Below are positions 5,164-40,700 of a stretch of DNA of 64,000 nucleotides, in pieces (position 1 is the first letter of the stretch; each line of letters starts with the position of its first letter). The position numbers and the translations under genes were made by a program. Origin of the DNA: Cladocopium goreaui (lineage: Eukaryota; Sar; Dinophyceae; Suessiales; Symbiodiniaceae); the NCBI GenBank assembly GCA_947184155.2, contig CAMXCT020006500.1, positions 108,100 through 172,099 of the forward strand. Direction: 5' to 3'. The notes below the pieces were generated by a model. It was not told the origin of the DNA. It saw only the letters and a program-made list of their open reading frames with translations, and searched no databases.

Positions 5164-6938
5164 TGGTTCAATCCCAATTTTGCCACCATTTGTGTTGGTT
5201 CAACCCTGATTTTACCAGGATTTGTGTTGGTTCAATTCCCATCTTACCACCATTTGTGTTGGTTCAACCCTGATTTTACCAGGATTTGTGTTGGTTCAAT
5301 TCCCATCTTACCACCATTTGTGTGGGTTCAACCCTGATTTTACCAGGATTTGTGTTGGTTCAATTCCCATCTTACCACCATTTGTGTTGGTTCAACCCTG
5401 ATTTTACCAGGATTTGTGTTGGTTCAATTCCATCTTACCACCATGTGTAAGTTGGTTACACCTGATTTACCAGCGCATTATGTGTTGGTCAATTTCCCCA
5501 TCTTACCACCCATTTGTGTTGGTTCAACCTGATTTTACAGGCATTTGACTGTCGGGTTAAATCCATCTTACCACCATTTGTGTTGGTTCAACCCTGATTT
5601 TACCAGGATTTGTGTTGGTTCAATTCCCATCTTACCACCATTTGTGTTGGTTCAACCCTGATTTTACCAGGATTTGTGTTGGTTCAATTCCCATCTTACC
5701 ACCATTTGTGTGGGTTCAACCCTGATTTTACCAGGATTTGTGTTGGTTCAATTCCCATCTTACCACCATTTGTGTTGGTTCAACCCTGATTTTACCAGGA
5801 TTTGTGTTGGTTCAATTCCCATCTTACCACCATTTGTGTTGGTTCAACCCTGATTTTACCAGGATTTGTGATTGGTCAATTCCATCTTACCACCATTTGT
5901 AGTGGGTTCACCTGATTACCAGGATTTGTGTTGCGTTCAATTTCCCATCTTACCACCATCTTTGTGTGGGTTCAACCCTGATTTTTTATACCAGATTTGT
6001 GTTGGTTCAATTCCCATCTACCACCATTTGTGCCGTTCACACTAGAATTTTACCAGGATTTAGGTTCGAGTCAATTCCCATCTTACGCCACCATTGATGT
6101 TGTTCAACCCTGATTTACCAGGATTGCCTGTGCCGTTCAATTCCCACATCTTACCACATTTGTAGTTAGGTTCAACCCTGATTTTCACCAGGATTGTGTA
6201 TGGTTCATTCCACATCTTACCACAATTTGTGTTGTTCAACCCTGATTGTTACCAGGTTTGTGTTGGTCAATTTCCCCATTTACCACCATTTTAGTGCTGA
6301 TGACAAGCTTCAACCCTGATTTTACCAGGATTTGTGTTGGTTCAATTCCCATCTTACCTCCATTTGTGTTGGTTCAACCCTGATTTTACCAGGATTTGTG
6401 TTGGTTCAATTCCCATCTTACCACCATTTGTGTTGTTCAACCCTGATTTTACCAGGATTTGTGTTGGTTCAATTCCCATCTTACCACCATTTGTGTTGGT
6501 TCAACCCTGATTTTACCAGGATTTGTGTTGGTTCAATTCCCATCTTACCACCATTTGTGTTGGTTCAACCCTGATTTTACCAGGATTTGTGTTGGTTCAA
6601 TTCCCATCTTACCACCATTTGTGTTGGTTCAACCCTGATTTTACCAGGATTTGTGTTGGTTCAATCCCATCTTTACCACCATTTGTTTTGGTTCAACCCT
6701 ATTTTTACCAGGATGTGGTTGGTTCAATTCCCTTACCACCATTTGTGTTGGTTCACCCTGATTTTTACCAGGATTTGTGTTGTTGTTGGTTCAACCCTTT
6801 TACCAGGATTTGTGTTGGTTCAATTCCCATCTTACCACCATTTGTGTTGGTTCAACCCTGATTTTACCAGGATTTGTGTTGGTTCAATTCCCATCTTACC
6901 ACCATTTGTGTTGGTTCAACCCTGATTTTACCATAATT
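5164..6938. repeat. 64-bp satellite array, about 27 copies
   Basis: The unit contains GGTTCAACCCTGATTTTACC, AGGATTTGTGTTGGTTC and AATTCCCATCTTACCACC. Both flanks have nearly perfect copies. Copies at about 5430-5570 and 5865-6310 are littered with single-base indels. The long frames in it (MCWFNSHLTT...) arise because the unit lacks stops in one frame; they are not genes. Confidence 0.95.
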
Positions 6939-13814: not shown

Positions 13815-13821
13815 ACCCCAT

Positions 13822-14325
13822 GCGTAGCGTAGCATCACATCATGTCTTGCAGTAGAGACGAATGCGTAGCGTAGCCTCCCATCATGTCTTGCAGTAGTGA
13901 CGAACGCGTAGCGTAGCCTCCCATCATGTCTTGCAGTAGAGACGAATGCATAGCGTATCCTCCCATCATGTCTTGCAGTAGTGACGAATGCGTAGCGTAG
14001 CTCCCATCATGTCTTGCAGTAGAGACGAGTGCGTAGCCTAGCATCACATCATGTCTTGCAGTAGAGACGAATGCGTACCGTAGCCTCCCATCATGTCTTG
14101 CAGTAGTGACGAATGCGTAGCGTAGCCTCCCATCATGTCTTGCAGTAGTGACGAATGCGTAGCGTAGCATCACATCATGTCTCGCAGTAGAGACGAATGC
14201 GTAGCGTAGCATCACATCATGTCTTGCAGCAGTAGTGACGAATGCGTAGCGTAGCATCACATCATGAGTAGAGACGAATGCGTAGCGTAGCATCACATCA
14301 TGTCTTGCAGTAGTGACGAATGCTA
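13822..14325. repeat. 42-bp minisatellite, about 12 copies
   Basis: The unit reads GTAGTGACGAATGCGTAGCG then TAGCCTCCCATCATGTC then TTGCA. It comes in GTAGAG and GTAGTG variants and in CCTCCC and CATCAC variants. Confidence 0.95.
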
Positions 14326-28700: not shown

Positions 28701-31700
28701 CCATGGAGAACACACATATTAGGCATTGGATATATACAGAATGACATATCAGTGATATCCAATTGTTATTCAATCCAATGGTAAGTGGTGGGTATAAATA
28801 GCTTTTGGAACATAATTAGTTGGTGGATTGATGATCCTTGCTATGGAAAAAATCCTGGTTTCATTTCATGGGACTTTCATGGGATTTTGCAATTCTTCAT
28901 CAATCTTTGTACCAATCAAATGAGATATTTCATGGGTAAACTTTGAAGATCCATGGGTAAACTACACATTCGGAGGCTATGACAATATGACAATCATCGA
29001 ATTGAGGGATCAACTACCCGGCCTGGTAAACGTTAACAAAAAACGAGGGAACATCACCATGCTATTATATAATGGGTAAATCCACTATTTCGACTGGGCC
29101 ATGGCTTCAATGTCGCAAACTGTAAACGTTTACCAGGCCGGGTATATTCCATCAATCACCATTACTAACCATTACTGACAATCATTAGCCATTACAATCA
29201 TATTAACCATTAGTAAATGGCCATGACTTCAAGATGGCTTTTTAACCGCTACTGCAGAGGGTAGAAAAAAGCCTGGTTTTCATGGCTCCTTGATATCTCC
29301 CCCATTGGAAAATCGCTGGGGGATTGAAAACCGAATCTGATGGAATCGGCATGGATGACCAGCTTTTTGACAATCTGCCAGGTGGCAACCGAGGTTTTCT
29401 CCCAACCGAGGTTTTCTCCCATTTTTTTGGAGGATTTTCCCATGAACATCATTTAAAATCCACATATATAAGTGATTTCCAATTGCCACGTTTGACTACC
29501 CAAGGGAGCAATGGACAAAACCCTGATAGAGTGCTATGGACCGTCAATGGATCCTTGAGTGAAATTTGACAAGTTTGAACCAACCAAAGAAGGTGTTTAA
29601 TAGTGATGGATGATGGATGATGGTATGTAAAATCGGGCACTTTGGTCATTTGTATGAGTGTTTTTTTCAACAAGAAATCTTGTAAAACCAACCTTTTTGC
29701 GGGGATCCTTGGGTAAAATATCTTTGTTTAACAATCAATCAAAGTCGGAACACACCATTCTTTGTACTCTTGGTCTAGAAGCTTCATTCTGTTCACCGCA
29801 TCTTTCAAGGATTCAATCAATCAAGCGTGGCAAAGATGCACGCAAACAAGCAGACGTTGAGAAGCAAGAAAAGCTGAAAGCAATCACCAAGATGCAAGCC
29901 GTTTACAGAGGCAAAGTTGCCCGCAAGGACGTGAAACAGATGAGAGAGCAACAAGAAGAGGCGGCCACAAAGATCCAAGCAATCAAACGTGGCAAAGATG
30001 CGCGCAAACAAGCGGACCTTGAAAAGCAAGAGAAGCTGAAAGCAATCACCAAGATGCAAGCCGTTTACAGAGGCAAAGTTACCCGCAAGGACGTGAAAGA
30101 GATGAGAGAGCAACAAGAAGAGGCGGCCACAAAGATTCAAGCAATCAAACGTGGCAAAGATGCGCGCAAACAAGCGGACCTTGAAAAGCAAGAAAAGCTG
30201 AAAGCAATCACCAAGATGCAAGCCGTTTACAGAGGCAAAGTTACCCGCAAGGAAGTGAAAGAGATGAAGGAGCAACAAGAAGAGGCGGCCACAAAGATTC
30301 AAGCAATCAAACGTGGCAAAGATGCACGCAAACAAGCGGACCTTGAAAAGCAAGAAAAGCTGAAAGCAATCACCAAGATGCAAGCCGTTTACAGAGGCAA
30401 AGTTGCCCGCAAGGAAGTGAAAGAGATGAAGGAGCAACAAGAAGAGGCGGCCACAAAGATTCAAGCAATCAAACGTGGCAAAGATGCGCGCAAACAAGCG
30501 GACCTTGAAAAGCAAGAAAAGCTGAAAGCAATCACCAAGATGCAAGCCGTTTACAGAGGCAAAGTTGCCCGCAAGGACGTGAAAGAGATGAGAGAGCAAC
30601 AAGAAGAGGCGGCCACAAAGATTCAAGCAATCAAACGTGGCAAAGATGCTCGCAAGCAAGCGGACCTTGAAAAGCAAGAAAAGCTGAAAGCAATTACAAA
30701 GGTGCAAGCCGTTTACAGAGGCAAAGTTACCCGCAAGGAAGTGAAAGAGATGAGAGAGCAACAAGAAGAGGCGGCCACAAAGATTCAAGCAATCAAACGT
30801 GGCAAAGATGCACGCAAACAAGCGGACCTTGAAAAGCAAGAAAAGCTGAAAGCAATCACCAAGATGCAAGCCGTTTACAGAGGCAAAGTTACCCGCAAGG
30901 AAGTGAAAGAGATGAGAGAGCAACAAGAAGAGGCGGCCACAAAGATTCAAGCAATCAAACGTGGCAAAGATGCTCGCAAGCAAGCGGACCTTGAAAAGCA
31001 AGAAAAGCTGAAAGCAATTACAAAGGTTCAAGCCGTTTACAGAGGCAAAGTTGCCCGCAAGGAAGTGAAAGAGATGAAGGAGCAACAAGAAGAGGCGGCC
31101 ACAAAGATTCAAGCAATCAAACGTGGCAAAGATGCACGCAAACAAGCGGACCTTGAAAAGCAAGAAAAGCTGAAAGCAATCACCAAGATGCAAGCCGTTT
31201 ACAGAGGCAAAGTTGCCCGCAAGGAAGTGAAAGAGATGAGAGAGAAACAAGATGGAGCAGCAAAAGTGATTGCCGATGGGGTCCAGCAAAGTCTTGTAGT
31301 TCATGAACAGCAGGAGCAGGTGCATGCGGGGTTTGCTGGGTGTGGCACAGTCCTTTCGGTTGTTGCACTTTCTTCGGAAGAATAGCAAGCTGGCATCGAT
31401 TTGGAAAGATGTGAAGCACTGCACTGAAGTTTCCTCTTATCCAATATGTTAACAGTTACTTAAGTGGCTTATGTTGTGGGAGGAAGAGGTCGCAAAGAAA
31501 AGAGAAGAGACCGAAGACTTGCAGAAGAAACTGCAGGAAGCCTCTGCAATGCAGGCTGGTTTCTTGCCATTGATGCGGCTGGATAATTTCATTGTTCATT
31601 CCAGCGGAATATACAGTATGAACAATTTGAAGGGTCGTGTCCCATCTTCCTCTTAATGTCAATTGTTTGCATAAGTGAAGTCAACGTCTGGTGCAAAATG

Positions 31701-34700
31701 CAAATGCCGTTTGGATACTGCATGCTGCATGGATTTTATGCTTAAAGATGCTTAAAGTCTTTGTGTCAAGAAGCGCAGTGAAATCTGAAAGTTTCAAAGC
31801 CAAAACCATTTCTGAAACTCTTGCTTTCAAACTGCCATGAACACTATGTAGTGGAAACGTGCAGGCAGAAATGGAGCAGCAGAAGCAGAAGAACGAAGAA
31901 TTGCAGAAGAAACTGCAAGAAACTGCTGCGCTGCAGGACCCATGGGACACATGTGCAGTGTCATGTGCAGGGGCCTCTTTGAATGTCCCACTTGTCAGCC
32001 GCTTTCTTCGGATGCGTATCTTGAGACACGATGTCTCCTTTTTGCAAGAATAGCAAGCTGGCATCGATTTGGAAAGATGTGAAGCACTGCACTGAAGTTT
32101 CCTCTTATCCAATATGTTAACAGCTACTTAAGTGGCTTATGTTGTGGGAGGAAGAGGTCGCAAAGAAAAGAGAAGAGACCGAAGACTTGCAGAAGAAACT
32201 GCAGGAAGCCTCTGCAATGCAGGCTGGTTTCCTGCCATTGATGCGGTTGGATAATTTCATTTTTCGTTCCAGCGGAATATACAGTATGAACAATTTGACG
32301 GGTCGTGTCCCATCTTCCTCTTAATGTCAATTGTTTGCATAAGTGAAGTCAACGTCTGGTGCAAAATGCAAATGCCGTTTGGATACTGCATGCTGCATGG
32401 ATTTTATGCTTAAAGATGCTTAAAGTCTTTGTGTCAAGAAGCGCAGTGAAATCTGAAAGTTTCAAAGCCGAAACCATTTCTGAAACTCTTGCTTTCAAAC
32501 TGCCATGAACACTATGTAGTGGAAACGTGCAGGCAGAAATGGAGCAGCAGAAGCAGAAGAACGAAGAATTGCAGAAGAAGCTGCAAGAAACTGCTGCACT
32601 GCAGGACCCATGGGACACATGTGCAGTGTCATGTGCAGGGGTCTCTTTGAATGTCCCACTTGTCAGCCGCTTTCTTCGGATGCGTATCTTGAGACACGAT
32701 GTCTCCTTTTTGCAAGAATAGCAAGCTGGCATCGATTTGGAAAGATGTGAAGCACTGCACTGAAGTTTCCTCTTATCCAATATGTTAACAGTTACTTAAG
32801 TGGCTTATGTTGTGGGAGGAAGAGGTCGCAAAGAAAAGAGAAGAGACCGAAGACTTGCAGAAGAAACTGCAGGAAGCCTCTGCAATGCAGGCTGGTTTCC
32901 TGCCATTGACGCGGTTGGATAATTTCATTTTTCATTCCAGCTGCATATGCAGTATGGACAACTTACAGGTCTTGTCAAAGCGTTTCAGTCTAAATCCATG
33001 AACTCTGGGTAGATAACTTGAATGCAGTTCTGAGAGTTTGAAAGTCAAAGCTTTTGAGATAGTCGTGTTTCGAAACTTCTCTGAACAGTACTGGTAGCTT
33101 GCAGGCCGAAATGGAGCAGCAGAAGCAGAAGAACGAAGAATTGCAGAAGAAACTGCAAGAAACTGCTGCTCTCGAGGACGTCTTGCACTATGTCTTGTTC
33201 TGCAGAACGACGATGTACTGTTACAAGGTGGTGCCCCAGTTGGTTTGCTTAGTTTGTTTACAACCAGGTTAGGGTTTGATATTGTGATTATAACATATAA
33301 GGTTTAAGGTGATGATAATCAACATATCATATAACAACAGATTACGACTATAGTGACTATTGCTAGGTGGGCTTACACAGCAATAAACACAACTGAGGGG
33401 CACCACCTTATAGGTATCATGCATCATATCTCCGTTTGGAAGAATGGCAAGCTGGCGATCTAGAAAGATACAGGTACAAAGGATGATCTTCTTCCCAATC
33501 CAATGTGTCAATATGTTGCAATCCAACATATTGCCAGCTACTTCAGTGGCTTATGTTGTGGGAGGAAGAGGTCGCAAAGAAAAGAGAAGAGACCGAAGAC
33601 TTGCAGAAGAAACTGCAGGAAGCCTCTGCAATGCAGGCTGGTTTCTTGCCATTGATGCGGTTGGATAATATCAGTTCGCATTCCAGCTGCATAATTATGC
33701 AGTATGGACAGTATGGACAACTTACAGGTCTTGTCAAAGCGTTTCAGTCTAAATCCATGAACTCTGGGTAGATACTGTAACTTGAATGCAGTTCTGAGAG
33801 TTTGAAAGTCAAACCTTTTGAGATAGTCGTGTTTCAAAACTTCTGTACACAGCACTGAGTACTGGTAGCTTGAAGGCAGAAATGGAGCAGCAGAAGCAGA
33901 AGAACGAAGAATTGCAGAAGAAGCTGCAAGAAACTGCTGCACTGCAGGACCCATGGGACACATGTGCAGTGTCATGTGCAGGGGTCTCTTTGAATGTCCC
34001 ACTTGTCAGCCGCTTTCTTCGGATGCGTATCTTGAGACACGATGTCTCCTTTTTGCAAGAATAGCAAGCTGGCATCGATTTGGAAAGATGTGAAGCACTG
34101 CACTGAAGTTTCCTCTTATCCAATATGTTGCCAGCTACTTAAGTGGCTTATGTTGTGGGAGGAAGAGGTCGCAAAGAAAAGAGAAGAGACCGAAGACTTG
34201 CAGAAGAAACTGCAGGAAGCCTCTGCAATGCAGGCTGGTTTCTTGCCATTGATGCGGTTGGATAATATCAGTTCGCATTCCAGCTGCATAATTATGCAGT
34301 ATGGAAAGTATGGACAACTTACAGGTCTTGTCAAAGCGTTTCAGTCTAAATCCATGAACTCTGGGTAGATACTGTAACTTGAATGCAGTTCTGAGAGTTT
34401 GAAAGTCAAACCTTTTGAGATAGTCGTGTTTCAAAACTTCTGTGCACAGCACTGAGTACTGGTAGCTTGAAGGCAGAAATGGAGCAGCAGAAGCAGAAGA
34501 ACGAAGAATTGCAGAAGAAGCTGCAAGAAACTGCTGCACTGCAGGACCCATGGGACACATGTGCAGTGTCATGTGCAGGGTCTCTTTGAATGTCCCACTT
34601 GTCAGCCGCTTTCTTCGGATGCGTATCTTGAGACACGATGTCTCCTTTTTGCAAGAATAGCAAGCTGGCATCGATTTGGAAAGATGTGAAGCACTGCACT

Positions 34701-37700
34701 GAAGTTTCCTCTTATCCAATATGTTGCCAGCTACTTAGTGGCTTATGTTGTGGGAGGAAGAGGTCGCAAAGAAAAGAGAAGAGACCGAAGACTTGCAGAA
34801 GAAACTGCAGGAAGCCTCTGCAATGCAGGCTGGTTTCTTGCCATTGATGCGGTTGGATAATATCAGTTCGCATTCCAGCTGCATAATTATGCAGTATGGA
34901 CAGTATGGACAACTTACAGGTCTTGTCAAAGCGTTTCAGTCTAAATCCATGAACTCTGGGTAGATACTGTAACTTGAATGCAGTTCTGAGAGTTTGAAAG
35001 TCAAACCTTTTGAGATAGTCGTGTTTCAAAACTTCTGTACACAGCACTGAGTACTGGTAGCTTGAAGGCAGAAATGGAGCAGCAGAAGCAGAAGAACGAA
35101 GAATTGCAGAAGAAGCTGCAAGAAACTGCTGCACTGCAGGACCCATGGGACACATGTGCAGTGTCATGTGCAGGGGTCTCTTTGAATGTCCCACTTGTCA
35201 GCCGCTTTCTTCGGATGCGTATCTTGAGACACGATGTCTCCTTTTTGCAAGAATAGCAAGCTGGCATCGATTTGGAAAGATGTGAAGCACTGCACTGAAG
35301 TTTCCTCTTATCCAATATGTTGCCAGCTACTTAAGTGGCTTATGTTGTGGGAGGAAGAGGTCGCAAAGAAAAGAGAAGAGACCGAAGACTTGCAGAAGAA
35401 ACTGCAGGAAGCCTCTGCAATGCAGGCTGGTTTCTTGCCATTGATGCGGTTGGATAATATCAGTTCGCATTCCAGCTGCATAATTATGCAGTATGGACAG
35501 TATGGACAACTTACAGGTCTTGTCAAAGCGTTTCAGTCTAAATCCATGAACTCTGGGTAGATACTGTAACTTGAATGCAGTTCTGAGAGTTTGAAAGTCA
35601 AACCTTTTGAGATAGTCGTGTTTCAAAACTTCTGTACACAGCACTGAGTACTGGTAGCTTGAAGGCAGAAATGGAGCAGCAGAAGCAGAAGAACGAAGAA
35701 TTGCAGAAGAAGCTGCAAGAAACTGCTGCACTGCAGGACCCATGGGACACATGTGCAGTGTCATGTGCAGGGGTCTCTTTGAATGTCCCACTTGTCAGCC
35801 GCTTTCTTCGGATGCGTATCTTGAGACACGATGTCTCCTTTTTGCAAGAATAGCAAGCTGGCATCGATTTGGAAAGATGTGAAGCACTGCACTGAAGTTT
35901 CCTCTTATCCAATATGTTGCCAGCTACTTAAGTGGCTTATGTTGTGGGAGGAAGAGGTCGCAAAGAAAAGAGAAGAGACCGAAGACTTGCAGAAGAAACT
36001 GCAGGAAGCCTCTGCAATGCAGGCTGGTTTCTTGCCATTGATGCGGTTGGATAATATCAGTTCGCATTCCAGCTGCATAATTATGCAGTATGGAAAGTAT
36101 GGACAACTTACAGGTCTTGTCAAAGCGTTTCAGTCTAAATCCATGAACTCTGGGTAGATACTGTAACTTGAATGCAGTTCTGAGAGTTTGAAAGTCAAAC
36201 CTTTTGAGATAGTCGTGTTTCAAAACTTCTGTGCACAGCACTGAGTACTGGTAGCTTGAAGGCAGAAATGGAGCAGCAGAAGCAGAAGAACGAAGAATTG
36301 CAGAAGAAGCTGCAAGAAACTGCTGCACTGCAGGACCCATGGGACACATGTGCAGTGTCATGTGCAAGGGTCTCTTTGAATGTCCCACTTGTCAGCCGCT
36401 TTCTTCGGATGCGTATCTTGAGACACGATGTCTCCTTTTTGCAAGAATAGCAAGCTGGCATCGATTTGGAAAGATGTGAAGCACTGCACTGAAGTTTCCT
36501 CTTATCCAATATGTTGCCAGCTACTTAAGTGGCTTATGTTGTGGGAGGAAGAGGTCGCAAAGAAAAGAGAAGAGACCGAAGACTTGCAGAAGAAACTGCA
36601 GGAAGCCTCTGCAATGCAGGCTGGTTTCTTGCCATTTTTTTGCGTTCTACTGTCTGTGGTGTCCGCAGACAGTAAAGTTGGTTTTATATCTGCAACAAGT
36701 ATCAAAAAACAGATGGGTTTGCTTCGTGGCACATTTCTACAAATGGATGGGTAGATGATCCAACGGATCCAAGCCCAGCAGTTTGGTTTCCAAAAAAGGT
36801 CCCCAACTCTGATCCAACTCTGGTGGGATAAAGCATCTTTGTATCACTGAAACCAAGGTGCTTAGCGGCTATGTACCATGCATGCACCGTGCAATTGCAC
36901 AAGCGCGTCAATTGATGTTTTGAATCAATTACAATCTTCCCATCTTCAGATCTGAAAACACACAGGTTATATCAGGTTATGGTTTCCGAAAAGTCATGGG
37001 TGCCCCAGTCATCATCCAACTCCTTAGATCATCTTCGTATTGTTTTCAACACAACGGTGACGGGGGATCCATGAGGCCGAAATGGAGCAGCAGCAGCTTC
37101 AAGCGGCTGCACTGCAGGCCAGGAAAAGATGCGAACGCAAACGCGAACCCAAAGTGGTTGGTGGTTTCAAACATTGGTTTAGTATGGGGTAATGATTGTT
37201 AATCATGGTTAATAATGGTTGATAATCACTGGTTGGTGGTTTCAAACATGGCTTTTATCTTCCATTTCATATATGGGATGTCATCCCAACCCCATTGACG
37301 AACTCATATTTTTCAAGATGGTTATTGCACGACCAACCAGCAAAAAACTGGCTTCAGAAAACCAAGATGTCATTTTGTTGTTAATCTGACATCGTGGTTG
37401 ATATATCGCCATTGGTATATAGAAATTATAAAACCAAGTGGGTTTGTCTATCATCGTGGTTTTCGATATATCCACTCGGCATATTGGTGTTTATTTTTTC
37501 ATTTGTGATGATCAGCGTCAATTCATCCAGTTGATGACTGAGGTATATCTTTGTAATGCTTAGTATTTGTCGGATATCGCTATATGGACTCCAGAATTCA
37601 TCCAGTTGCAGTACTACAGTTCTAGCAGTTATAGCCCTTAACAGCTGTAACTGGCTTATAATGATACATATATATATATATATGCATACAATTATATATA

Positions 37701-40700
37701 TACATATAATCATATGTATGTATAATAATAATAATATATTATTATTATTATATAACCTTAGTTACACGAGTTACGATCCCATCTATGACTGTTAGGGGGC
37801 CATAGCTGGTATATCTTGGCTTATGCTCCCAGCGGGAGCCACGGTTGGGTCAATCGACGTGCATGAGGATTTCCTGAAGATCCCCGAACTAAATGGAGGG
37901 TTACCATATTTAATCACTCACCATGAAATCCCTTTAAATCCCAAAAACTCGCCATTTTTCTCACTCAACTACCAGGTTCATTGGAATAATTGCTCAAATC
38001 ACCATTGATCTAAATGACTCAAAGTACCATGGTACTCGTCAAATAATCGACATATATCATGTTTTATATTTAACAATTTCATCAAATTCTCATACTTGAT
38101 TGAATATATCAATGATTATTATATTAAATCAATGACTGGTACCATATTTAACCATTTATATATCATTATATATCAAATTATCAGATAATGGACATGGTAT
38201 AAATGGTACTACTCAAGATTAATCACTGTTTTACTTCATGCTTACCATAGATGTCCTTTTCACACTGGTTGGTTGAGCAAAATAGAGGGGTTTCTTCAGG
38301 TATATCATTATATATCAAATTATCAGATAATGGACATGGTATAAATGGTACTACTCAAGATTAATCACTGTTTTACGTCCTTTTCCCACTGGTTGGTTGA
38401 GCAAAATAGAGGGGTTTCTTCAGACCCCTTCAACAACAGAAGTTTGAGATAGGGGATTAACCAGCTCCCGGCCCGGCCCCTTTTTTTTTTTCCCACAAGG
38501 ACATATTATTGATTTATAACTCAAACAGGAGAAATATGGGAAAATATGGGAAAATATGGGAAATGTGCTTGGGATGACCATACTGTATGTACAATTTGAA
38601 GTCAAAGAACTCAAATTGATAGCAAACACAACATGGTTAAAATGGGAGAAATATGGGAAAATAGTGGATGCCCATACTAATATATGACTCGTAGCTGGGA
38701 AGAGCAGATTAAAATTGGAGAAATATGGGATTTAGCCAAGATCATGGTGCTTTTTTGTTGGTTTTAGCCAGCAAGGATGGGGATGTTGCGGTGAGGTACT
38801 GGTGGTAAACTGGTGGTAAACTTTGATCAAAGGATCATCAATGCCAAAGTCGGTACCTTTATAATTCTGAGACCGGGGGCCATACTGGATTAGTTACCCT
38901 CTGGTAAACTACCACAGCTATGGAAAATCCCCATCTTTAATGGGTAAATCAACTATAAATGGCCATTTTCAATAGCTACGTTAAATTACCAGAGGGTATG
39001 CCATTTTCGAAACTCGTTATGCCCCTCTGCCAGAGAAGTGTTCTCTTTTTGAAGACTCCTTTTTTTGACCGGAAACTTCCTGACTCAGGCGGAACTGGAA
39101 AAACAGAAGAAGGAGAATGAAGAGCTTCAAAAAAAGTTGCACGACACGCCGACACAGGCCTTCTTGAATGACTGGACTTGAGCATGTCATCACTGGATGG
39201 TGGTTACCATAAGTCATGGGGAACGCAACATTTGATCTAACAATGGCTCGTTTTTAATGGGGAAGCCAATGGTTGAATGGGGACCGGGGACCCAATTTTT
39301 TCGAAATCATTTGGAACGCGTGAAAGTGTTGAACTCAGCCAATTGCCGTAGCTGAAAAAATTGGGGACTTGCGATCTAAGCATGGAAAGGGGAACAGCCA
39401 ACAGATGACAGGCTCCAAGACCTTTGAATCAATGGTTGACCTGGTTATCATTGATCATGCTGTGGACAAAATGCTGCAGCACTTTGGTCACTATTGGTGA
39501 CTATGAAACACTGTAGATAATGGGATTATAGTGGGCTAAACATTTAGCAACTGGTGCAGGATTTCTTCCATCCACAATATGTTTATACACAATCCATAGA
39601 TATAGCTGGAGGCAGTAAGTTGAAAATGAACTTTTGCAAGTACTGTAATCAAAGGCACTCAAAGGTTCTTGCAACGGCCAATCCAGTAATGAATGATTGG
39701 TAGTATTGGCTCATGATTTCAGAAATCCCAAAAAACTTTAGCCTCTGACCATTAGAGTCGCACTTGGGAATATGATCTTGCGCAAGCAGTGCTTTTTTGC
39801 GAATGACATAAGAATTTTAAGGCTCCTACCCATCAACCAACATCGATCAAAGCATCAAAGCAGATTTGTGGGGCCCACATTCTCTTCTTGCTTAAATCTC
39901 CAAACAATGTGGTGCCCCCAACAGTTGTTGCCCCTCTTCAAAGACAAAGCAATCTGGGTTGATCCATTTTTATCAATTTTTATCAATTTTTATCCTAATT
40001 TTAGTTGATGAGATATCTGGGCCAAGTGTAACTACCGAACCCTGTTCTCCCGAGCCCTGGAATCATTGTTCATAAGGGGAATCATCCCAAAATGGCCGCA
40101 AGTTTCATGTTAGCGTATTATAATTTACCCAGATTTAGCACTTTTGGGAAGATCCTACTAACCTTGCAATGTCGAGGCCCCCAAACGATAGCGAGACGTT
40201 GACGCACAGAGCATTGTATATAATTTGGCCAGAGATATCTATGGAAAATCACCATTTTTAATAGGTAAACCATGGTAAACCATCTACTGTATAAATGGGC
40301 CATCTATACCATGGCTATGTTAGTCATAACCAGAGGGTAAATCATCACTGGTTGGTGGTTTGGAACATGGCTTTTATGACTTTCCCATCATATTGGGAAT
40401 AGTACCCCCAACTGACGAACTAGATCCGGCTGGAGGTGTCCTGGGGGTACCCCCCAAATCCACGCCACTTCGTGGTTGATAATGGTTAGTAATAGGTAAT
40501 AATGGATAATAATAGTGGTTAATAGTGGTTAATGGTGGTTGATGATGGATAATAGTGGTTAATAGTGGTTAATAGTGGGTAATACTGGTTAATAAAGGTT
40601 AATAGTGGGCAATAGTGGTTAATGGTGGTTGATAAAGGTTCATAGTGGCTAATAGTGGTTAATAGCGGTTAATGGTGGTTGATAGTGGTTGGTTAACAGT

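What the first reader, a model, noticed from the sequence alone, without database searches (positions are those of the whole stretch)
31483..36619. Exon-pair amplification builds a coiled coil in 48-residue steps
Nine A and eight B exons of exactly 72 bp alternate in a tandem genomic array. Introns of the 597-bp units are nearly as conserved as the exons, so the array grew recently by whole-unit duplication. Two unit sizes (668 and 597 bp) and shared intron markers (A5 with A8) suggest multi-unit steps. A and B share ExxLQKKLQExxAxQ, so the pair itself came from an older exon duplication, and B9 and B10 are older relics. Protein length would then vary between strains by units of 48 residues.
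Basis: partly seen in the sequence, partly recalled or inferred. Interest (0 to 1): 0.75.

Follow-up and report, generated by a model that had tools for sequence, protein, structure and literature searches.

The report
Dinoflagellate tandem exon-pair coil array
Inside what looks like a dinoflagellate gene for a calmodulin-binding (IQ) protein, a pair of 72-letter exons is repeated about eight times in a row, so the encoded rod-like stretch probably grows in 48-residue steps; other organisms have such exon arrays, but this one keeps a readable record of how it grew.

Summary
Nine A and eight B exons, each 72 bp and phase 0, alternate at 31483-36619. The nine A exons are identical; six of eight B exons are identical and the other two differ by 5 synonymous and 1 non-synonymous inferred changes. 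The genome is a dinoflagellate's. The exons follow, in frame, an exon of nine 54-residue IQ-motif units.

Units 4-8 are recent copies (4, 6, 7 identical). Units 1-3 are not simple copies: A-B introns are of two kinds that align only over the first 51-87 nt, while the A exons beside them are identical. Units 4-8 carry unit-3-like A-B introns but unit-2-like B exons and B-A introns; in unit 4 the switch falls within 8 bp at the B exon edge. So exchange at exons took part, not only whole-unit copying.

No transcript, strain or read data were at hand: splicing, coil formation and length polymorphism are inferred. Nearest known kinds are the Tetrahymena 90-bp exon arrays and the human LPA KIV-2 exon-pair repeat. 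I rate it a new member of a known kind, with an unusual 24-residue (7+7+10) period.

The parts
29808..31319 (+). IQ-motif exon: nine 54-residue units (each two 27-residue IQ-like halves), then a tail ...HEQQEQ; donor GT at 31320, phase 0. Exon start not determined (open frame from 29658)
   Evidence: Pfam IQ PF00612 E 9e-72, 9 stretches; 162-bp repeat x 8.9; frame and donor; units
31320..31482 (+). Intron before A1 (GT-AG); its last 115 nt match the second B-A intron at 97%, so it holds the left edge of the repeat unit
31483..31554 (+). Exon A1 ([24 protein letters not shown])
31865..31936 (+). Exon B1 ([24 protein letters not shown])
32151..32222 (+). Exon A2
32533..32604 (+). Exon B2
32819..32890 (+). 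Exon A3
33105..33176 (+). Exon B3 (last residue Q to E; most diverged B of the array)
33177..33564 (+). Third B-A intron, 388 nt, mostly unlike the other seven (alike only in two 3' pieces of 36 and 44 nt), holding a 185-nt insert at 33225-33409 with 13-bp inverted ends AAGGTGGTGCCCC
33565..33636 (+). Exon A4
33876..33947 (+). Exon B4; resemblance switches from unit 3 to unit 2 between 33870 and 33878
34162..34233 (+). Exon A5 (the following intron carries two markers shared with the one after A8)
34473..34544 (+). Exon B5
34757..34828 (+). Exon A6
35068..35139 (+). Exon B6
35354..35425 (+). Exon A7
35665..35736 (+). Exon B7
35951..36022 (+). Exon A8
36262..36333 (+). Exon B8
36548..36619 (+). 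Exon A9; likeness to the other A-B introns ends about 17 nt downstream
   Evidence: by eye
37076..37117 (+). B9: 42-bp B-like exon candidate ([14 protein letters not shown]), phase 0, AG before and GC after
39089..39157 (+). B10: 69-bp B-like exon candidate ([23 protein letters not shown]), AG before, GC after

Best explanation
This is part of a dinoflagellate gene for an IQ-motif (calmodulin-binding) and alpha-helical coil protein. Two 24-residue exons, A and B, have been multiplied into an A(BA)8 array. Every array exon is 72 bp with phase-0 borders, so any number of pairs splices into one open frame and each pair adds 48 residues (about 7 nm of helix; rise recalled). The array grew in steps. 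An old duplication made A and B from one exon. Distinct A-B units then existed with different introns. An exchange at the edge of exon B joined a unit-3-like A-B intron to a unit-2-like B exon and B-A intron. That hybrid unit was then copied, recently, to five near-identical units by unequal crossing over or a similar process. SHOWN by sequence: the array, frame, borders, exon identity, intron kinds, the mosaic switch, unit identities. INFERRED: that the exons are spliced and translated, that the product is a coiled coil, that copy number varies between strains, that crossing over rather than conversion made the exchange, and any cellular role (a long calmodulin-binding cytoskeletal scaffold is my guess).
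For: Array and identity. The 16 introns between A1 and A9 have dinoflagellate-type borders: 8 of 8 A-B are GC-AG, 8 of 8 B-A are GA-AG; 16 of 16 carry an in-frame stop if read through. GC/GA-AG borders are given as 25-74% in Symbiodiniaceae (PMC11453091, passages). In-frame link from the IQ exon through a GT-AG intron to A1. Coding-like change: 5 of 6 inferred changes among B exons are synonymous, expected fraction 0.18, P about 0.0009; A versus B2 dN 0.27, dS 1.54; B2 versus B10 differ at 8, 1 and 12 sites by codon position, dS not computable. Exon A shows 0 of 72 differences between units 3 and 4 where their A-B introns show 20 of 214, P 0.005. Mosaic: where U2 and U3 differ, U4 matches U2 at 5 of 5 exon B sites and 33 of 33 columns in the next 50 nt (gap columns included); over the whole B-A intron U4 differs from U2 at 3 of 214 and from U3 at 80 of 204. 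In the A-B intron U4 mostly matches U3 (20 of 214 differences against 97 of 226 for U2). Recent copying: U4 = U6 = U7. Coil: 24/7 periodicity of core residues reached by 22 of 5000 shuffles; A and B choose the same best register. Dinoflagellate: PCP family 150 scored matches, 0 of 14 control genomes; spliced leader 172 exact hits, 0 in the reversed control.
Against: No RNA, read or strain data. Power at 4.8 residues is as high as at 3.43 in the same test (51 against 42), so the structure could be a single charged helix. Pfam and PDB give no convincing relative of the A-B product (best E 0.0062 under its cut-off, and 0.085). The Fisher and synonymous tests rest on few, non-independent changes and were chosen after seeing the alignment; two of the six B changes are neighbouring bases. 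The first stretch of the A-B intron of U4 is mixed (10 sites like U2, 7 like U3, 2 neither), so the story has more than one exchange or later change in it. Copy number rests on one assembly. Outside the IQ exon, the other IQ-like stretches of the supposed gene are weak.
Confidence: 0.8

Rival explanations
1. The exons are real but used in varying number (cassette splicing), so one gene yields several rod lengths rather than one long rod.
For: Near-identical splice borders in all copies; all array exons are symmetric, so skipping keeps frame. Exon skipping is given as 77% of alternative splicing events in one dinoflagellate genome (PMC11453091, passage).
Against: Copies are identical in protein (9 of 9 A; 7 of 8 B), so choice among them would change only length; nothing here favours it.
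Confidence: 0.25
2. Exon identity reflects conversion or crossing over confined to exons, not selection on a protein; the array may be a decaying, untranslated duplication.
For: A exons are identical even between units whose A-B introns align only at their start; a switch of resemblance lies at an exon border.
Against: Changes among B copies are 5 of 6 synonymous; A-B2 dN is well under dS; 0 of 17 copies has a stop or frame shift; the frame is kept from the IQ exon into A1.
Confidence: 0.12
3. Copy number is an assembly artefact: identical units were multiplied or collapsed.
For: U4, U6 and U7 are identical, and the U5-only differences are 1-bp homopolymer losses. If the assembly is the Cladocopium one it is a hybrid short/long-read product (PMC9412976, passages).
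Against: Six of eight units are distinguishable as sequence types (6 distinct), though U5 is so only by losses and markers that could in part be errors; flanks are not repeated.
Confidence: 0.2
4. The product is a single charged alpha-helix rather than a coiled coil.
For: High charge: 77 K+R and 103 D+E of 408 residues, many i to i+3 and i+4 pairs; 4.8-residue power as high as 3.43.
Against: I/L/V/M at 57% of the 7+7+10 core positions.
Confidence: 0.3

Closest known systems
Tetrahymena LRR genes with tandem arrays of exactly 90-bp exons (Xiong et al. 2019, PMC6564038; abstract, outline and passages seen)
   Same: Alveolate; runs of exactly equal short exons in one intron phase, number variable between genes, explained by unequal crossing over and exon shuffling
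   Different: 90 bp, phase 2, LRR proteins, thousands of genes; here 72 bp, phase 0, two exon types alternating, charged coil, one locus found
Human LPA KIV-2 repeat (PMC4378929; passages seen)
   Same: Repeat unit is a pair of exons with two introns; protein length changes by whole pairs
   Different: Kringle domain, 5.5-kb unit, 1 to >40 copies shown between people; here units of about 600 bp and polymorphism untested
Nebulin triplicate region and titin segmental duplication (PMC9109913, PMC9142044; search listing with start of abstract only)
   Same: Blocks of exons repeated inside a gene for a long structural protein, with copy-number change
   Different: Nebulin: eight exons repeated three times; muscle proteins
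Tropoelastin alternating exon pairs (recalled; one search listed no paper on it among 10 of 14)
   Same: Two exon types alternate and are thought to have multiplied as pairs
   Different: Hydrophobic and cross-link exons of varied size, animals

Membership tests
Tandem uniform-exon array (Tetrahymena type) | Three or more consecutive exons of exactly the same length | tested here: met
   17 consecutive 72-bp exons by sequence; not confirmed in RNA
Tandem uniform-exon array (Tetrahymena type) | 90-bp exons, phase-2 introns, LRR protein | tested here: not met
   72 bp, phase 0; no LRR in the Pfam scan
Exon-pair coding VNTR (LPA KIV-2 kind) | Repeat unit made of two exons and two introns in tandem | tested here: met
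Exon-pair coding VNTR (LPA KIV-2 kind) | Copy number differs between individuals | not testable with these tools
   one genome held; it has no relatives here
Exon-pair coding VNTR (LPA KIV-2 kind) | Kringle domain | tested here: not met
   Pfam scan of the A-B-A-B product gives no kringle
IQ-motif protein | IQ motif above Pfam cut-off | tested here: met
   PF00612 230.6 bits, cut-off 20.3, in the upstream exon that joins in frame
Coiled coil | Regular hydrophobic core (a/d positions) | tested here: inconclusive
   core mean 0.62 for 7+7+10 against 0.25 for an unbroken heptad; the latter must fail on any 24-residue period, so it is a weak comparison
Dinoflagellate introns | GC/GA-AG borders | tested here: met
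   16 of 16 introns between A1 and A9
Dinoflagellate introner elements | Intron body repeated at many genome places | tested here: not met
   the type I A-B interior gives 2 matches, units 1 and 2; 12 of 12 matches of a whole unit-4 query lie in the array. These searches skip very common words

The most novel reading that the evidence does not exclude
Exons, not introns, are the recombination tracts: with A-B introns diverged beyond alignment, the 72-bp exons are what lets units exchange and homogenise. The gene is then a length-tunable rod whose exon size (24 residues, 7 turns at 3.43 residues per turn) fixes an overwound coil with one stammer per exon, and array length is polymorphic among strains.
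Probability: 0.2. Interest if true: 0.6.

Novelty: new member of a known kind. Interest (0 to 1): 0.4.

Why it matters
It is a compact record of how a repetitive rod protein can grow: an exon pair, phase-0 borders, two generations of introns and an exchange point within 8 bp of an exon edge. If length varies among strains it would allow a direct test of whether exon-pair number is tuned in a calmodulin-binding scaffold. Phrase searches of an open-access library for tandem exon duplication in dinoflagellates and exon duplication in Symbiodinium returned 0 papers; in a wider search I saw only the listing of 10 of 24 papers. Most subscription papers are not in that library, so absence from print is not shown.

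Tried and rejected
Looked for other copies of the array: none found in this genome. Looked for A/B-like stretches in about 20 kb at each of two IQ-array paralogues (C6004, C1861): best score 36 (a K/Q-rich stretch on the other strand), others 34 or less, against 71 for B10; some exceed the window's background of 25, none looks like A or B; rejected. Tested whether intron bodies are genome-wide introners: the type I A-B interior is found only here; the insert in the third B-A intron has end pieces at 12 other places. Looked for a 44-base piece of exon A in viral and in bacterial/archaeal contigs: 0 matches each, as expected for a eukaryote. Pfam for the A-B product: 7 families up to E 1, none reaching its cut-off (best DUF6468, E 0.0062); PDB: one row, a kinesin-like protein at E 0.085. 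Pfam rows XRCC4, GUN4 and DUF4942 on the IQ exon pass their whole-protein cut-offs but have 0 stretches passing alone; I take them as repeat or composition artefacts. Other IQ-like stretches picked by eye from a regular-expression list: 28307 reaches 19.6 or 20.5 bits, by the piece given (cut-off 20.3), 53926 reaches 17.0, 22462 and 25409 give no match; the piece given for 53926 was out of frame. Structure prediction was not run: the spliced product is not a contiguous translation of the window, which the tool requires. One search listed no elastin exon-pair paper; (exon duplication, exon pair, coiled-coil) gave one unrelated paper.
Full report
WHAT IS THERE. A mismatch-tolerant scan of both strands finds nine copies of exon A and eight of exon B, each 72 bp, alternating on the + strand from 31483 to 36619. 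The nine A copies are one sequence; the B copies are three: B2 and B4-B8 are identical, B1 differs from them at 2 of 72 and B3 at 5 of 72. A encodes [24 protein letters not shown] and B encodes [24 protein letters not shown] (B3 ends in E). They share 11 of 24 residues, with the common core ExLQKKLQExxAxQ (the finding wrote ExxL). Unit lengths are 668, 668, 746, 597, 595, 597, 597 and 597 bp.

SOURCE. The window is G000:C5859:108100-172099 of a 1.17-Gb genome in 6202 contigs. The peridinin-chlorophyll protein family matches at 150 scored places (169 candidates; 0 of 14 control genomes), and the dinoflagellate spliced leader (sequence recalled) matches exactly 81+91 times, with 0 for the pattern read backwards. 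So it is a dinoflagellate. Size and contig number are near those of Cladocopium goreaui (1.2 Gb, 6843 scaffolds; PMC9412976, passages), but the species is not established.

GENE CONTEXT. Directly upstream an exon holds nine 54-residue units, each with two 27-residue IQ-like halves; Pfam IQ E 9e-72. That exon is open to 31319, before a GT donor in phase 0, and A1 starts in phase 0. Other IQ-like stretches on this strand, picked by eye from a regular-expression list, are weak: 28307 is at the Pfam cut-off (19.6 or 20.5 bits against 20.3, by the piece given), 53926 under it (17.0), 22462 and 25409 unmatched. How far the gene extends is therefore open. B-like exon candidates follow A9: B9 at 37076 (42 bp) and B10 at 39089 (69 bp), both whole codons with AG before and GC after. 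B10 scores 71 against B, where the best background stretch scores 25; the 24-residue stretch at B9 scores 27, hardly above background, so B9 rests on its first six residues and its position. If A1-A9, B1-B8, B9 and B10 are all joined the coil stretch is 445 residues.

SPLICING AND CODING. All eight A-B introns are GC-AG and all eight B-A introns GA-AG; 16 of 16 have an in-frame stop if read through. Such borders are given as 25-74% in Symbiodiniaceae (PMC11453091, passages). The six inferred changes among B exons are five synonymous and one not (Q to E in B3), against an expected synonymous fraction of 0.18 (P about 0.0009; two of the six are neighbouring bases and may be one event). A versus B2 gives dN 0.27 and dS 1.54; B2 versus B10 gives 8, 1 and 12 differences at codon positions 1, 2 and 3, dS not computable. 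This is what translated exons look like. No RNA evidence was available.

HISTORY. A-B introns come as 310 nt (units 1, 2), 214 nt (unit 3) and 239 nt (units 4-8). BLASTN aligns the unit-2 intron with those of units 3 and 4 over the first 87 and 51 nt, and otherwise only in 9-14-nt scraps, yet the A exons beside them are identical. Units 3 and 4 differ at 20 of 214 aligned intron sites against 0 of 72 in exon A (P 0.005; a comparison chosen after seeing the data). B-A introns are alike in units 1, 2 and 4-8 (0-4 substitutions in 212-214) and different in unit 3 (388 nt; 78-80 differences in 202-204 aligned sites), apart from two 3' pieces of 36 and 44 nt at 83-86%. The unit-3 intron holds a 185-nt insert with 13-bp inverted ends; end pieces of about 40 bp occur at 12 other genome places, 11 for the left end and 1 for the right. 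So the two introns disagree: by the A-B intron units 4-8 belong with unit 3, by exon B and the B-A intron with units 1-2. At columns where units 2 and 3 differ, unit 4 matches unit 2 at 5 of 5 in exon B and 33 of 33 in the 50 nt after it (6 of these are gap columns). In the A-B intron it mostly matches unit 3, but the block 33656-33717 is mixed (10 like U2, 7 like U3, 2 neither), and two later blocks hold 5 of 28 and 4 of 22 U2-like columns, where aligning unrelated sequence means little. The last unit-3-like site is 33870 and the first unit-2-like one 33878. Units 4, 6 and 7 are identical over 597 bp; units 5 and 8 share two intron markers, so the five copies needed a multi-unit step or several single ones (inference). 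The two losses special to unit 5 are in homopolymers and may be sequencing error.

COIL. A 24-residue unit is not a whole number of heptads. Both exons score best in the same register of a 7+7+10 pattern (core V-K-T-L-L-A-M and M-Q-N-L-L-T-L). Power at 24/7 = 3.43 residues per turn is 42, reached by 22 of 5000 shuffles, but power at 4.8 is 51; an unbroken heptad over the array averages 0.25 against 0.62, a comparison that any 24-residue period would win. I read this as a coiled coil with a three-residue insertion (stammer; term recalled) in each exon; a single charged helix is the alternative. A search for papers holding stammer, coiled coil and 24-residue gave 0.

HOW IT LIKELY WORKS. The exons are symmetric and in one phase, so adding or losing a pair does not break the frame; the array can grow by misaligned exchange, and each step lengthens the rod by 48 residues, about 7 nm (helix rise recalled). 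Beside an IQ array, the protein is most simply a calmodulin-binding scaffold; that role is a guess.

UNIQUENESS AND KIN. No second array was found in this genome. Two other contigs carry IQ arrays 39-53% identical (C6004, C1861; 10 of 16 matches, 150 of 162 candidates scored), without A/B-like exons in the nearly 20 kb read at each. The A-B product reaches no Pfam cut-off, and its best PDB row has E 0.085. The mechanism has precedents: Tetrahymena 90-bp LRR exon arrays (PMC6564038; abstract, outline and passages) and the two-exon LPA KIV-2 repeat (PMC4378929; passages). [quoted passage not shown] this array is a small case in a related group (both alveolates, recalled), presumably independent.

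VERDICT. Real, probably protein-coding, and a new member of a known kind.

Noticed in passing
29808-31252: Second coding repeat joined in frame, inside one exon: nine 54-residue units of two 27-residue IQ halves; neighbouring copies 93-96% alike to the first, changes mainly at third positions (49, 22, 129 by codon position over units 1-8). Both arrays are built of pairs.
   Followed up: partly
33225-33409: 185-nt insert with 13-bp inverted ends (AAGGTGGTGCCCC) in the third B-A intron; end pieces of about 40 bp occur at 12 other genome places, so it looks like a short mobile element.
   Followed up: partly
46483, 48707, 49670, 53926: Further charged, coil-like or weakly IQ-like open stretches on the same strand, possible later exons of the same gene.
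   Followed up: partly
5164-6933: About 27 copies of a 64-bp tandem repeat.
   Followed up: no
13820-14323: About twelve copies of a 42-bp repeat, open as a protein repeat on the - strand within a 204-residue frame.
   Followed up: no
L055 (C6004:558500-568400): IQ-motif paralogue with an 859-residue open frame of tandem IQ repeats; a second frame is open over three stretches of 167-227 residues there.
   Followed up: no
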